A DNA stretch of 35,275 nucleotides, taken from assembly GCA_029098125.1 (NCBI GenBank), contig JAQXNS010000030.1, positions 1 to 35,275 on the forward strand. Reading direction: 5' to 3'. This document shows positions 325-12,525 of the stretch, one piece after another (position 1 is the first letter of the stretch; every line of letters begins with the position of its first letter). The position numbers and the translations under genes are program-made. The stretch is from a bacterium. Lineage in GTDB: Bacteria > Bacillota_I > Bacilli_A > RFN20 > CAG-826. The notes beneath the pieces were generated by a model. That model was not told where the DNA came from. It searched no databases and saw nothing but the letters and a program-made list of their open reading frames with translations.

Positions 325-678
325 TTATTTAGAAAAATATTTGTTCTCTAATTCATCAATGGTTTTTTCATCTTTTTCTGATAAATGCCAATTGTTATAA
401 GGCTTCGAAAATGCGCTAGCTTCAACTTGCGTCACTCTTCGTATACACAAAAATGAATCGGCATCATCATTTGGATTAGGATTTTTTTCCATTTTTATGT
501 AGTCGTTCGGTTTACTCAGAACTCTTAATACGGAATGAGTAAACATATATCCGGAGATGTACATTTTTCCATCGATTTCTTTTTCTTCGACTACAACAAC
601 AATAAATGGGTGAGATTTCCCTTTTTTGTAAATTCTAAAATGGTACTTATCAGGTCCATTGTAGTTTTTGAAAGACAT
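325..678 (-). CDS. Conserved-looking small protein of unknown function, 117 aa; speculative PemK/ToxN-like fold
   Basis: ORF with SD (aaggagga) ~6 nt before ATG. Topology HPFIVVVV...ISGYMFTHS...YIKMEKNP...DADSFLCIRRVTQV...WHLSEKDEKTIDELENK vaguely follows the PemK-like pattern. Confidence 0.7.
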   Translation of the reverse strand: MSFKNYNGPDKYHFRIYKKGKSHPFIVVVVEEKEIDGKMYISGYMFTHSVLRVLSKPNDYIKMEKNPNPNDDADSFLCIRRVTQVEASAFSKPYNNWHLSEKDEKTIDELENKYFSK

Positions 679-719
679 GTTAATTCCTCCTTTCTTTAGA
701 AAGTAGCGGTGTCTTCAAA

Positions 720-1060
720 AGGAGATAATAAAAGCCATCACCGTAATGAAAACACCTTTTTGTAGTTATCGACTAAGTCCCGTAACTACTGGTGTTACAT
801 CATCCTTGTGATGGCCACATGCTCAATTAAATAATAATTGTAGGGAGCGTGATGATCTTCTTGCATCTAAGACCGTGTCCTAATGGTCGCCATTTATCTT
901 AGAGGTTCATATCATTACTGGGCAATACTTTCCCTATTACCACACCCTAACACGTAGTGTGATAGTTCATACATTCATTGATCTCAGTTTACTTGCGTAT
1001 GGTCGACTTTGCTTAATTAGCTAGTTCATATCGCTTGTGGTCTAAATATACGAGCAACTT
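720..1060 (-). ncRNA. Candidate structured non-coding RNA or long structured 5' leader of the 117-aa gene (strand inferred from adjacency)
   Basis: Nested long-range pairing GCCATCAC/GTGATGGC, ATGA/TCAT, AACACC/GGTGTT, GTAGTTA/TAACTAC (~733-815). Further hairpins CTAAGA..TCTTAG (~867-903) and CACAC..GTGTG (~941-961). GC is 35-45% per 60-nt line against 15% in the line starting at 1081. No convincing ORF. Confidence 0.5.
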
Positions 1061-1664
1061 TACTTTATCATAAGTGTAAATTTTATTAAATAAAAAGTAA
1101 TCAACGTATATGCTTACATAATGAATATTTGATAATTTTTCTATTGATTAAAAGTACGAGTAAAATAAAATCTGACTTTAGAAAACTCGGATATTTTAGG
1201 CAAGTAAATTGATAGAAATATTGAAAAAAGCAATGAACCAAATAAACCATGTTCTAATTTTAGCGCTTTAGAAAAATTATTTATTAGATTGATCTTTATC
1301 TACATAAAGTTATCTTGTAAAACAATCTAAATAAACTATTACGGCAGAATCAACAGTCCACTCCGTTTTTGCCGAAAGCATAGAAATCGTTAAAGAAATT
1401 TTTATGCAATAAGCAATTTATTTAACAGTTCTAAAATGCAAAACATGAAAAAATGGTCAAAAATCATTAAAACTCCATTTGTTTTTAAAATTATTTCTAT
1501 CAATTGCGATGATTTTAATTATGCAAGGCCTAGCACTATTGCGGATAAAGTTTTTATATTTTTACTGAAATTTATTAAATTATCAGAAAAAATTTCGTTT
1601 ATTATAGATTTTGATTTAACAAATTCTTTATGGAAAAATTATTAAGTGGCAAAATATAAAGAGT

Positions 1665-4600
1665 ATGGGTTTATTTACTAGAAATGATGTTCAAGAATAC
1701 AAAGAATTAGAAAGTTTTAGCTTTTTTCTAGATTCTTTATTGTCTAAAGACGATTACATTTCTCGAAAAGAATATCTAATTGAATCAACAAAATTAAATG
1801 AAACATTTGATAAGTTGATTCTTATGGATAAAGAAAATGTTTTAGCTGCATGGTGCAAACAAAATAAAGTCGACTTTAAAAAACTCAAGTTTTTGATGGA
1901 TAAATTTACCAAAACAGAGTCTTTAGTTAAAAAACATAATGATGAATATGTTCTTAATCATTTAAAGATAGATAAGGAATATCTCGATTCTGTTTTAGAA
2001 AAAGATGATCCAAATATTAAACTTGATGAAGAACAAAGAAGAGTTGTACTTTCAGACGAGGACTATACTTTAGTTATTGCTGGGGCTGGTGCTGGAAAAA
2101 CAACAACTATTGAGGCAAAAGTTAAATATCTCGTTGATAAAAAGAATATAAATCCAGATAGAGTTTTAATTGTTTCTTTCACTAGAAAAGCCACAGAAGA
2201 GTTAAAAGAACGTTTTGCTCGTTTACAAATCCCTGTTAATATCGCTACATTTCATTCAATTGGAAATGCAATTATTAAAGAAAATGATAATATCCAGCAC
2301 AAAATTGTTGAGCCGGGTTTTATGTATAACGTAATCAAAGATTATCTTCTAAGTAAATTAGATGATGAATATTTTATTAAGAAAATTCTTCTTTTCTTTG
2401 CTTCATATTTAAACATGCCTTTTGAAAGTAGTAATGCTCAACTATTGAAGAAAACATTATCTGCTAATGATTTCACGACTCTAAAAAGCGATATAACACA
2501 ATTATTAGATGAATATCATAAAGAACAAACAAAACAAAAAATCACAATTAATGATGAAAGAGTTAGAAGTATTGATGAATGTAGAATTGCTAACTTCTTA
2601 TATATAAAAGGAATAGATTATGTCTACGAGCCTGTTTATCAATTCGGATTTGAAGACACCACAAAACCTTATTGTCCTGATTTTTTGATTAAATACAATG
2701 GCCAAGAAATTTATTTAGAGCATTTTGGCATTAGCGAAAGTGGCAAAAATAGTAGATTCACCAAAGAGGAACTTGAAGAATATAAACGCCACGTTAACGA
2801 CAAGGTCAAACTTCATAAAAAACATAAAACAAAATTAATTTATACATTCTCTAAATATAATGATGGCAGAGATGTTATTACGCATCTTGAAGAAATTCTT
2901 TTAAAAGAAGGAATCAAGTTTGACGCAAAAGATAATGTTCAAATTTATCGTAGATTAGCTGAAAAAGCAGAAGATAAATATTTCACAAAATTTATTCAAT
3001 TAATTTGTAATTTTATTAATAGATTTAAAGTGTCAAATTTTGATCCAGATACAAAATTTGATGAATGGCTTTACAGTGTTAAAGATGAAAGAACAAAACT
3101 TTTTGTCGAAATCGCAAAAAGATGTTTTTTAATTTATGAAGCACGTAGACTAGAAGAAAAAGCAATTGATTTTGAGGACATGATAAATAATGCCTCTAAT
3201 GTTCTTGATAAGAGAATTGCGGAAGGCGATTTACTTCCCTATGACTATATTTTCGTTGATGAGTACCAGGATATTTCTTTACAAAGATTTGATTTATGTG
3301 AAAGATTGTCGAAGGCTTCAAAGGCAAAAATCATTGCAGTTGGCGATGATTGGCAATCCATTTTTAGGTTTAGTGGTGCCCAAATTGAATTATTCACTAA
3401 ATTCGAAGAAAAAATGGGATATGCAAATGTATTAAAAATCACAAAAACTTATCGAAATTCTCAAGAACTTATCGATATTGCTGGCAGTTTTGTTATGGAA
3501 AACCAAAAACAAATTAAAAAAGATTTAAAATCTAATAAATCGATAAAAGATCCTGTAATTTTAATGAGTTATGACGATTCTTACGATAAAGATGACCAAG
3601 AACACGGTCCATTTTATAGATTAGGTGAAGCAATTGAAAAATCACTTGATGATATTGTTGCAAAATGTGGCATGGAAAGTAGCGTGTTACTTATTGGAAG
3701 ATACAATTTTGATGGCAAGAATCTTGCGAAACTCGAAGATTTCTTTAAAATGAAAAACAACAAGATAATTTCAAAAAAATATCCTAAGCTTGATATTTCT
3801 TTTATGACTGCACATGCCTCTAAAGGTTTAGGAAGAGATAATGTTGTTATTATTAATGGTAAGGATGATGTTTTAGGATTTCCATCAAAAATCGAAGATG
3901 ATCCAATTATGAAACTTGTCATTAAAGAAGATGAAACCATGGATTTTGAAGAGGAAAGAAGATTGTTTTATGTTGCATTAAATAGAACAAAGAACAGAGT
4001 TTATATTATAACTCCTCAATTAAGACCATCAAAATTCATTCTAGAAATTAGTAAGAAATTTACAAATGTGATTTTGCGTGGCGCTGAATTAAATCCTCAA
4101 GAAGATACGAAAAATAAATATGTATGCCCATGTTGTGGATATCCGCTTCAAAAGAGAACGTCTAATTTAAAAATTTCGGATGTCACGAAAAAGTTATGGA
4201 TTTGCTCTAACGACCCAGAAGTCTGTGGGTTTATGACCAATGACTTAAATGGCAACAAATTTAAATTAAGCATTTGCAAGTGCACTGAGTGCAATGATGG
4301 TTATTTAATTGTCAAAAAGATTGATAACCCTCAATATGATAGAATGCTTGGTTGCACAAATTACACTACTCGTCATTGCACGAACTATATGCTTCCAACT
4401 AACTATACCCAAGATAAAAATAAAATTTTAAAGTTAAATGATGGAAAAGTTTTTTGTAGCGAATTTAAAGCCGAAGTTATTACGATACTTAATGCAATAG
4501 CAGAAATATTTAAAAAATATCCTAAATTTAGGCTTACTTTTACTTCACTTACAAACTTTTTGACTGGTAAAGAAAGCAAAACAATTACAACTTTTATGTT

Positions 4601-4796
4601 AAATAATATCGAAGGTTATGGAATTTATTCTGAAAAACCATCCTATTTTATAACTAAATTTTTAAATGCTTTGTTTGATTATGATATTCTTTTAAAAACA
4701 AAAGATGAGGAAAATCATAGAAAAATTGAATTACAAAACATCAATCCTTCTGATGAAACAATTCTTGAAATATATAAAGCGATTAAGAAATATTAG
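1665..4796 (+). CDS. UvrD/Rep-family superfamily 1 helicase with an inserted PD-(D/E)XK-like nuclease segment and a C-terminal zinc-ribbon + winged-helix-like tail
   Basis: Walker A VIAGAGAGKTTT, DEYQDIS (motif II), VGDDWQSIFRFSGA (motif III), FMTAHASKGLGRDNVVI, EEERRLFYVALNRTKNRVYI (motif VI); insert ECRIANFL..YVYEP..YCPDFLIKY..IYLEHFG; CPCCGYPL and CTECNDG zinc ribbons. Confidence 0.93.
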   Translation: MGLFTRNDVQEYKELESFSFFLDSLLSKDDYISRKEYLIESTKLNETFDKLILMDKENVLAAWCKQNKVDFKKLKFLMDKFTKTESLVKKHNDEYVLNHLKIDKEYLDSVLEKDDPNIKLDEEQRRVVLSDEDYTLVIAGAGAGKTTTIEAKVKYLVDKKNINPDRVLIVSFTRKATEELKERFARLQIPVNIATFHSIGNAIIKENDNIQHKIVEPGFMYNVIKDYLLSKLDDEYFIKKILLFFASYLNMPFESSNAQLLKKTLSANDFTTLKSDITQLLDEYHKEQTKQKITINDERVRSIDECRIANFLYIKGIDYVYEPVYQFGFEDTTKPYCPDFLIKYNGQEIYLEHFGISESGKNSRFTKEELEEYKRHVNDKVKLHKKHKTKLIYTFSKYNDGRDVITHLEEILLKEGIKFDAKDNVQIYRRLAEKAEDKYFTKFIQLICNFINRFKVSNFDPDTKFDEWLYSVKDERTKLFVEIAKRCFLIYEARRLEEKAIDFEDMINNASNVLDKRIAEGDLLPYDYIFVDEYQDISLQRFDLCERLSKASKAKIIAVGDDWQSIFRFSGAQIELFTKFEEKMGYANVLKITKTYRNSQELIDIAGSFVMENQKQIKKDLKSNKSIKDPVILMSYDDSYDKDDQEHGPFYRLGEAIEKSLDDIVAKCGMESSVLLIGRYNFDGKNLAKLEDFFKMKNNKIISKKYPKLDISFMTAHASKGLGRDNVVIINGKDDVLGFPSKIEDDPIMKLVIKEDETMDFEEERRLFYVALNRTKNRVYIITPQLRPSKFILEISKKFTNVILRGAELNPQEDTKNKYVCPCCGYPLQKRTSNLKISDVTKKLWICSNDPEVCGFMTNDLNGNKFKLSICKCTECNDGYLIVKKIDNPQYDRMLGCTNYTTRHCTNYMLPTNYTQDKNKILKLNDGKVFCSEFKAEVITILNAIAEIFKKYPKFRLTFTSLTNFLTGKESKTITTFMLNNIEGYGIYSEKPSYFITKFLNALFDYDILLKTKDEENHRKIELQNINPSDETILEIYKAIKKY

Positions 4797-11673: not shown

Positions 11674-12525
11674 TTATTCCTCCTCGTAATAATAAGAGTA
11701 ATCGATACCTTTCATAAAAATATCTCTGTTATTTATATCGTTAATTAAAGCTTGTTTGAGAAGACTAAAAATAGGTTTTGAATCAACAGGGCTCGCTTTC
11801 ATTGCCAACAAATAATCTTCCTTATTAATTTTTGACCAATCAATGCACTTTTTGAGCCTGTCCTTTAGAAGTAAATCTAACCAAATTCTAGTTGATCTAC
11901 CATTGCCTTCCATAAATGGATGAGCAATATTCATTTCAATATATTTATCAACTATTTCATCAAATGTATTATCAGGCATCCTGTTAATATCTTGCAAAAC
12001 CTGTGGTAAAAAGTCTCCGTTAGCAAAAGTAAATCCGCCTTTAGAAATAGTTTTAGTTCTGATTTTACCAGCGAATGGATAAAGCCCTTCAAACAAGTAA
12101 GCATGTATCTTTTGTAAAGCAATAGTCTTTCCAATTTCCTCTTTTTCAATCAATTCTGTTTTATAAAAGTCATAGGCTTTTTTCTTACTTTGCTCATCTA
12201 TTGGATCAAGTGAGCCGTCTAACCATTTTTCAAATTCTATATTATTCTTACTTCTAAGAATTCTTCCCAGTTTCTTGATTCCTGTTTCATCAATTACGTC
12301 AGTAAGATATTTCTTGCCATCATCAGCATATAATTTCAGTTGTCTACAAAATGTATTCAACTCAGGATTTCTTCGTTTAATAGCATTCCAATATATTCTT
12401 GGATTTTTGGAATCAGTTAGCACAAAAACAACATCAGTGGCGGAATACCACCATTTTGTTAATTTGCTATCCCATACAGCACGGATTGGTTTATTTAAAA
12501 AATACCTAATTGAATGTTTTATCAT
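11674..12525 (-). CDS. Bro-N/DinD-like N-terminal domain fused to Fic domain (Fic-family AMPylase-like)
   Basis: N-term IRAVWDSKLTKWWYSATDVVFVLTDSKNPRIYWNAIKRR...NTFCRQLKLYADDGKKYLTD (DinD/Bro-N-like). Fic motif AHPFMEGNGRSTRIW; flap-like YPFAGKIRTKTISKGGFTF; C-terminal SYYYEE. Confidence 0.88.
   Translation of the reverse strand: MIKHSIRYFLNKPIRAVWDSKLTKWWYSATDVVFVLTDSKNPRIYWNAIKRRNPELNTFCRQLKLYADDGKKYLTDVIDETGIKKLGRILRSKNNIEFEKWLDGSLDPIDEQSKKKAYDFYKTELIEKEEIGKTIALQKIHAYLFEGLYPFAGKIRTKTISKGGFTFANGDFLPQVLQDINRMPDNTFDEIVDKYIEMNIAHPFMEGNGRSTRIWLDLLLKDRLKKCIDWSKINKEDYLLAMKASPVDSKPIFSLLKQALINDINNRDIFMKGIDYSYYYEEE

What the first reader, a model, noticed from the sequence alone, without database searches (positions are those of the whole stretch)
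720..1060. Highly structured, locally GC-enriched non-coding segment directly upstream of a 117-aa orphan gene: candidate new ncRNA or cis-regulatory RNA
Seen directly: a nested set of long-range complementary arms. In + coordinates these are GCCATCAC ~734 with GTGATGGC ~808, then ATGA/TCAT, AACACC/GGTGTT and GTAGTTA/TAACTAC. A loop holding GACtaaGTC caps them, giving an ~80-nt hairpin. Further hairpins follow: CAC..GCTCAATT/AATT..GAGC..GTG, CTAAGA..GACC/GGTC..TCTTAG and CACAC/GTGTG. By hand count the 60-nt lines from 721 to 1020 are 35-45% GC, while the line starting at 1081 is 15%. Locally high GC plus structure in an AT-rich genome is a known signature of functional ncRNA. I could not match it to T-box, M-box, tmRNA, RNase P, SRP or a group I/II intron.
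Basis: partly seen in the sequence, partly recalled or inferred. Interest (0 to 1): 0.72.

Follow-up and report, generated by a model that had tools for sequence, protein, structure and literature searches.

The report
RNA switch upstream of swappable toxins
The folded segment is a roughly 330-nucleotide RNA, of which one third is already catalogued as the "COG3943 RNA"; it appears to act as an on/off switch placed in front of many unrelated toxin-like or phage-defence-like genes in gut bacteria, and the gene behind it is exchanged while the switch stays.

Summary
The folding is real, but the RNA is on the MINUS strand, and window 752-851 is a confident match to Rfam RF02941 (COG3943 RNA; 85.8 bits, cut-off 71.8). 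It is therefore not a new family. Rfam's model covers only about a third of it. Across 66 non-redundant relatives, covarying helices span about 330 nt (window ~1056-730, minus strand), from a promoter-like box to a terminator hairpin, ending shortly before the 117-aa gene. The 3' end carries two linked sets of mutually exclusive pairings. One fold makes a terminator and buries the ribosome-binding site; the alternative breaks the terminator. I read it as a cis-acting expression switch, default OFF, signal unknown. In 93 places in 65 genomes (one family of rumen/gut Bacilli) the RNA precedes unrelated genes: DUF1016 nuclease, RhuM-Fic, BrnT-BrnA, KilA-N, and this window's 117-aa family (predicted MazF-like fold). 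RNA type hardly predicts the gene: identical RNAs front DUF1016 and RhuM, and one genomic site keeps flank and RNA while the gene differs. This argues against a toxin-specific RNA antitoxin. Everything is computational; no expression, ligand or toxicity was measured. Novel relative to Rfam: full extent, switch, modular toxin/defence cargo.

The parts
1062..1072 (-). -10-like promoter box just upstream of the RNA (TATAAT in the family consensus, TATGATAAAGT here); no convincing -35
   Evidence: Conserved column block; 76 of 86 loci have a 5/6 TATAAT match in the upstream stretch against 38% of random stretches
730..1056 (-). Full-length structured RNA (approximate ends; transcription start inferred, not measured)
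   Evidence: Conservation and covariation over the whole span in 66 non-redundant relatives
968..1052 (-). 5' domain: H0 1052-1044/976-968, H1 1040-1035/987-982 (poorly formed in this window), H2 1034-1027/1001-995, H3 1021-1019/1013-1011
   Evidence: 68-87% of cells paired, 21 of 25 pairs with changes on both sides; outside the Rfam model
938..964 (-). H4 hairpin 964-957/945-938 with conserved loop GTGTTAGG
   Evidence: 98.5% paired, all 8 pairs covary; top-ranked covarying columns in an unbiased scan
841..936 (-). H5 long-range helix 936-932/845-841, joining the 5' domain to the Rfam part and enclosing variable hairpin H6 902-897/872-867
   Evidence: 98.8% paired, 3 of 5 pairs covary
752..851 (-). 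Rfam RF02941 (COG3943 RNA) match; contains hairpin H7 839-835/829-825
   Evidence: 85.8 bits, gathering score 71.8, E 2e-14; H7 95% paired
734..815 (-). Terminator hairpin: T 815-808/741-734, A:B 796-791/756-751, inner stem 789-783/768-762, then the T-run 733-727
   Evidence: T 97.4% paired; z -5.9; at least 5 T in an 8-nt stretch within 30 nt in 86 of 86 relatives
798..813 (-). L: competing local hairpin 813-809/802-798, exclusive with T; base 812 pairs with either 799 or 737
   Evidence: 4 bp paired in 66 of 66; 812, 799 and 737 change together, A-U to G-C
708..756 (-). B:C 756-747/717-708 (GGUGUUUUCA with UGAAGACACC), exclusive with A:B
   Evidence: 91.8% paired; own partners better than swapped ones, 0 of 2000 permutations
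685..725 (-). UCUCCUUU (725-718) pairing with the Shine-Dalgarno sequence AAAGGAGGA of the 117-aa gene
   Evidence: SD paired in 64 of 69 lowest-energy folds; own -12.0, swapped -10.5 (0 of 2000), shuffled -7.2 kcal/mol
325..678 (-). 117-aa gene controlled by the RNA; predicted MazF-like fold
   Evidence: AlphaFold pLDDT 86; best 12 Foldseek hits all MazF, E 0.04-0.3, TM about 0.5-0.6

Best explanation
The segment is a full-length COG3943 RNA that works as a cis-acting switch in the leader of the 117-aa gene. RNA polymerase starts near window 1056 on the minus strand and makes a folded 5' domain (H0-H5). It then makes GCCAUC, which can pair either with the local GAUG (L) or with the distal GAUGGC (T). 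In the default state T and A:B form a terminator, and any read-through message has its ribosome-binding site paired with UCUCCUUU, so the gene is off twice over. When an unknown signal stabilises the 5' domain or the L hairpin, T cannot form, polymerase reads through, B:C replaces A:B, and the gene is made. The same switch fronts many unrelated toxin-like or phage-defence-candidate genes, which are exchanged behind it. Shown: minus strand, extent, covarying helices, mutually exclusive conserved pairings, position before the gene, cargo diversity, cargo differing at one site. Inferred: that T terminates, that SD pairing represses, default OFF, that a signal exists, and that the 117-aa protein is a toxin.
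For: RF02941 match on the gene's strand. Structure counts: 87% paired, covariation 0.405 against at most 0.09 when slid; alternative state 0.427 against at most 0.10. Three-way change at 812/799/737. Own partners pair better than swapped ones for T, A:B, B:C and SD. Terminator fold -44.2 against -38.1 kcal/mol for the alternative in the window. Gene start usually 55-110 nt after the Rfam match. Cargo changes on the RNA tree 30 times, shuffled mean 34. No shared leader peptide.
Against: No transcript, termination or ligand data. T is a long interrupted hairpin that the simple terminator scan does not report. Permutations do not remove relatedness completely; several B:C changes are one-sided U-A to U-G. 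About ten loci have their first large gene 170-250 nt or more away, and one (G389) precedes a metallophosphoesterase. Rfam types the family as sRNA.
Confidence: 0.7

Rival explanations
1. An RNA antitoxin, as in type III toxin-antitoxin systems: the RNA binds and neutralises the protein encoded behind it, and the terminator sets the RNA:toxin ratio.
For: Structured RNA and terminator upstream of a MazF-like, BrnT or Fic-domain gene; no protein antitoxin seen next to most 117-aa genes.
Against: One RNA type serves proteins of unrelated folds; identical RNAs precede DUF1016 and RhuM. BrnT loci bring their own BrnA. No tandem repeats in the RNA. Does not explain SD pairing or B:C.
Confidence: 0.1
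2. An independent trans-acting small RNA that merely ends before the gene (Rfam's classification 'Gene; sRNA').
For: Own promoter-like box and terminator; more than one copy in many genomes.
Against: Near-constant spacing to a gene on the same strand in almost all loci, conserved pairing with that gene's SD, and B:C beyond the terminator have no use in an sRNA.
Confidence: 0.12
3. Mainly a DNA recombination site for gene cassettes (integron- or hotspot-like), conserved for recombination rather than as RNA.
For: Different cargo at one site with flank and RNA kept; RNA-gene-RNA-gene tandems with only the RNA repeated (G434, G377); 19 of 69 loci have a tRNA gene within 1 kb downstream.
Against: No recombinase was recognised among the neighbours I looked at, though I did not search systematically. 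The element lies before the gene and carries a promoter-like box and SD coupling. Three-way pairings are not explained. Ordinary homologous recombination between copies would suffice, and the two uses can coexist.
Confidence: 0.08

Closest known systems
Rfam RF02941 COG3943 RNA
   Same: Window 752-851 (-) is a member by score and structure.
   Different: The model has 108 positions; the conserved RNA has about 330. It includes L but not T, B:C, the SD pairing, H0-H6, nor the range of cargo genes.
Riboswitches and other terminator/antiterminator leaders (general class)
   Same: Folded 5' domain, mutually exclusive terminator and antiterminator pairings, SD sequestration, gene in cis.
   Different: Signal unknown; no Rfam riboswitch matches the 5' domain; controls unrelated toxin- or defence-like genes rather than one metabolic pathway.
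Type III toxin-antitoxin (ToxIN-like)
   Same: RNA, terminator, then a toxin-like gene.
   Different: No tandem repeats; one RNA shared by unrelated proteins; SD coupling.
MazF/PemK toxins (for the 117-aa protein)
   Same: Predicted fold; best structural hits all MazF.
   Different: No sequence-family match; usually no antitoxin gene beside it; activity unknown.
Integron cassettes (attC)
   Same: A conserved structured element with exchangeable single genes, sometimes in tandem.
   Different: The element lies before the gene and carries promoter-like box, terminator and SD coupling; no integrase noticed.

Membership tests
RF02941 COG3943 RNA | Covariance-model score above the gathering score | tested here: met
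   85.8 against 71.8 bits, full model length
RF02941 COG3943 RNA | Neighbouring COG3943 (RhuM) gene that gives the family its name | tested here: met
   RhuM follows the RNA in 17 relatives; in this window the neighbour is the 117-aa gene instead
Riboswitch / attenuator | Expression platform with mutually exclusive conserved pairings | tested here: met
Riboswitch / attenuator | Direct binding of a defined ligand | not testable with these tools
   No binding data; no known aptamer match
Riboswitch / attenuator | Transcription termination at the hairpin | not testable with these tools
   Hairpin and T-run predicted only
Type III toxin-antitoxin | Antitoxin RNA made of tandem repeats | tested here: not met
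   Tandem Repeats Finder 0 rows at score 30
Type III toxin-antitoxin | RNA specific to its cognate toxin | tested here: not met
   Identical RNAs with different cargo; cargo nearly random on the RNA tree
MazF/PemK toxin (117-aa protein) | MazF-like fold | tested here: inconclusive
   Best hits all MazF but E only 0.04 or worse
MazF/PemK toxin (117-aa protein) | Endoribonuclease activity | not testable with these tools
   None
Integron cassette | Tyrosine integrase nearby and attC after the gene | tested here: inconclusive
   None recognised by eye in neighbouring ORFs, not searched systematically; the element lies before the gene

The most novel reading that the evidence does not exclude
A portable, default-off RNA sensor that gut bacteria reuse in front of interchangeable phage-defence or toxin modules. 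It would sense an infection- or stress-linked signal, so that the switch evolves as a unit of its own while cargo genes come and go behind it.
Probability: 0.35. Interest if true: 0.85.

Novelty: new variant of a known kind. Interest (0 to 1): 0.62.

Why it matters
Known attenuating RNAs mostly control metabolism and are tied to one pathway. A large conserved switch shared by unrelated toxin- or defence-like genes, with the gene exchanged behind it, would be a modular regulatory layer for bacterial immunity. It would give an orphan Rfam family a testable function, and the signal it senses could reveal how cells decide to release costly genes. It also shows that the curated model covers only a third of the molecule, which would mislead experiments built on it.

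Tried and rejected
Plasmid and phage collections: no match. Viral contigs: one contig carries the RNA and looks cellular; a looser 21-mer gave four more hits that I did not examine and assume to be chance. Phage-borne origin is not supported. Wider distribution: RF02941 and my model R1 found members only in one bacterial family, in samples of 291-395 genomes of the class and phylum. Leader peptide: rejected, no shared peptide. Decayed coding gene: rejected, because changes preserve base pairs over the whole span. Second AlphaFold job (119-aa protein): too poor to use (pLDDT 43). Ms_IGR-2 hit: far below threshold, ignored. Simple promoter and terminator scans: nothing useful. 'Empty sites': two of three turned out to be deletions or decay, not ancestral empty sites. 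The source paper of RF02941 is not in the held library, so I could not compare with its authors' gene list; statements about that family beyond the Rfam hit are from my own knowledge.

Full report
OBSERVATION. The strongest element is the 734-815 hairpin, z -5.9 on the minus strand. The whole 340 nt is only modestly better than shuffles.

KNOWN FAMILY, MINUS STRAND. cmscan places RF02941 (COG3943 RNA) at window 752-851, minus strand, 85.8 bits against a threshold of 71.8. The RNA therefore points at the 117-aa gene (678-325, minus), which starts 73 nt after the Rfam match, behind AAAGGAGGA.

LARGER THAN RFAM. The genome has a second copy (contig 112), 68% identical over window 787-1034, which already runs beyond the Rfam model. 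Searching the bacterial family gave 94 matches in 65 of 225 genomes, of which 93 were analysed. None lay outside the family in a phylum sample. An independent pattern scan of 85,462 genomes gave 57 stretches, in MAG records titled as Bacilli, Erysipelotrichaceae, Bacillales and similar, many from rumen or faeces. I aligned 66 non-redundant copies. Conservation begins at a -10-like box and runs through the leader to the ribosome-binding site. An unbiased ranking of column pairs put the 5' hairpin H4 and the long-range helix H5 on top, both reaching outside the Rfam part. With the structure written out, 87% of cells pair, with covariation score 0.405 against at most 0.09 for slid controls and 0.169 for shuffles. 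The lowest-energy fold of the window RNA agrees with most of it. A covariance model of window 966-790 recovers members that were left out of it, such as G164:C3 and G153:C45, at E about 1e-26 to 1e-27.

A SWITCH. Base 812 pairs with 799 (local hairpin) in one fold and with 737 (terminator) in the other. All three letters change together, A-U to G-C, and both pairings are kept in practically all sequences. A second set is A:B (AACACC/GGUGUU) against B:C (GGUGUUUUCA/UGAAGACACC), whose C strand lies beyond the T-run. Real partners pair better than partners swapped between sequences in all of 2000 permutations for T, A:B and B:C; for L the effect is weak by this test (31 of 2000). The stretch UCUCCUUU after the T-run pairs with the gene's own ribosome-binding site in 64 of 69 lowest-energy folds, and own partners beat swapped ones in all of 2000 permutations. 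These permutations do not remove relatedness fully; the slid controls and the three-way change are the stronger evidence. In the window the terminator fold is the more stable (-44.2 against -38.1 kcal/mol), suggesting default OFF. There is no shared leader peptide.

CARGO. Behind the RNA I find DUF1016/YhcG nuclease (about 48 loci), RhuM (17; the 16 complete ones carry an HPFADGCKR Fic-like motif, and Pfam finds Fic in the one tested), the 117-aa family (15 directly, plus one interrupted copy and two preceded by a 60-75-aa ORF), BrnT followed by BrnA (5), KilA-N (1), and a 119-aa protein (2 loci, one of them followed by a BrnA/CopG-like antitoxin gene). PADLOC places the RhuM-Fic and DUF1016 proteins in its PDC families (that PDC means phage-defence candidate is from my own knowledge). 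The 117-aa protein models well (pLDDT 86) and its best 12 structural hits are all MazF, though weak. This is a lead, not proof.

MODULARITY. On the RNA tree the cargo label changes 30 times (shuffled mean 34), so RNA type carries little information about cargo. Two RNAs of one genome are identical yet precede DUF1016 and RhuM. Copies within a genome share just the promoter-to-C-helix block (for example -238 to +148, 99%), not flanks or cargo. At one site in six genomes, flank and RNA are kept while the gene is a DUF1016 subtype or RhuM; homology stops at the end of the RNA and resumes after the gene, at a tRNA cluster. Related genomes show a deletion scar, a RhuM pseudogene without RNA, and one clean vacancy. 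tRNA genes lie within 1 kb downstream of the cargo in 19 of 69 loci. How cargo moves is not established.

VERDICT. Not a new RNA family. It is an extended, better-defined one with a plausible mechanism (cis-acting terminator and ribosome-binding-site switch) and an unexpected use (exchangeable toxin- or defence-like genes). Nothing here measured transcription, ligand binding or toxicity.

Noticed in passing
L155 4333-4589; also upstream of the RNA in L154 and L011: Two or three tandem 85-bp repeats upstream of the RNA resemble a palindrome-bearing stretch inside DUF1016 coding sequence; the palindrome stems vary between copies with compensating changes.
   Followed up: partly
L214 1501-1884 and L215 1492-1866: Relatives of the 117-aa protein without this RNA sit beside a tmRNA gene in two genomes; more distant relatives occur in small arrays (L216, L218).
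   Followed up: partly
L017 1673-2366: A 119-aa protein of the same HFR...HP pattern is followed by a BrnA/CopG-like antitoxin gene, suggesting an undescribed toxin pair.
   Followed up: partly
19 of 69 related loci, e.g. the site of L080 and L096: tRNA genes (Gly, Pro, Arg, Trp, His and others), mostly convergent, lie within 1 kb downstream of the cargo gene.
   Followed up: partly
window 11674-12525 (-): A Fic-like protein (HPFMEGNGR) next to tRNA-Glu, without this RNA upstream by the Rfam scan.
   Followed up: no
window 1665-4796 (+): A 1043-aa UvrD-like helicase with weak RQC-like and zinc-finger matches, divergent from the RNA.
   Followed up: no
L158 1317-1392 (-): A c-di-GMP-I riboswitch upstream of the cargo-exchange site in G410.
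   Followed up: no
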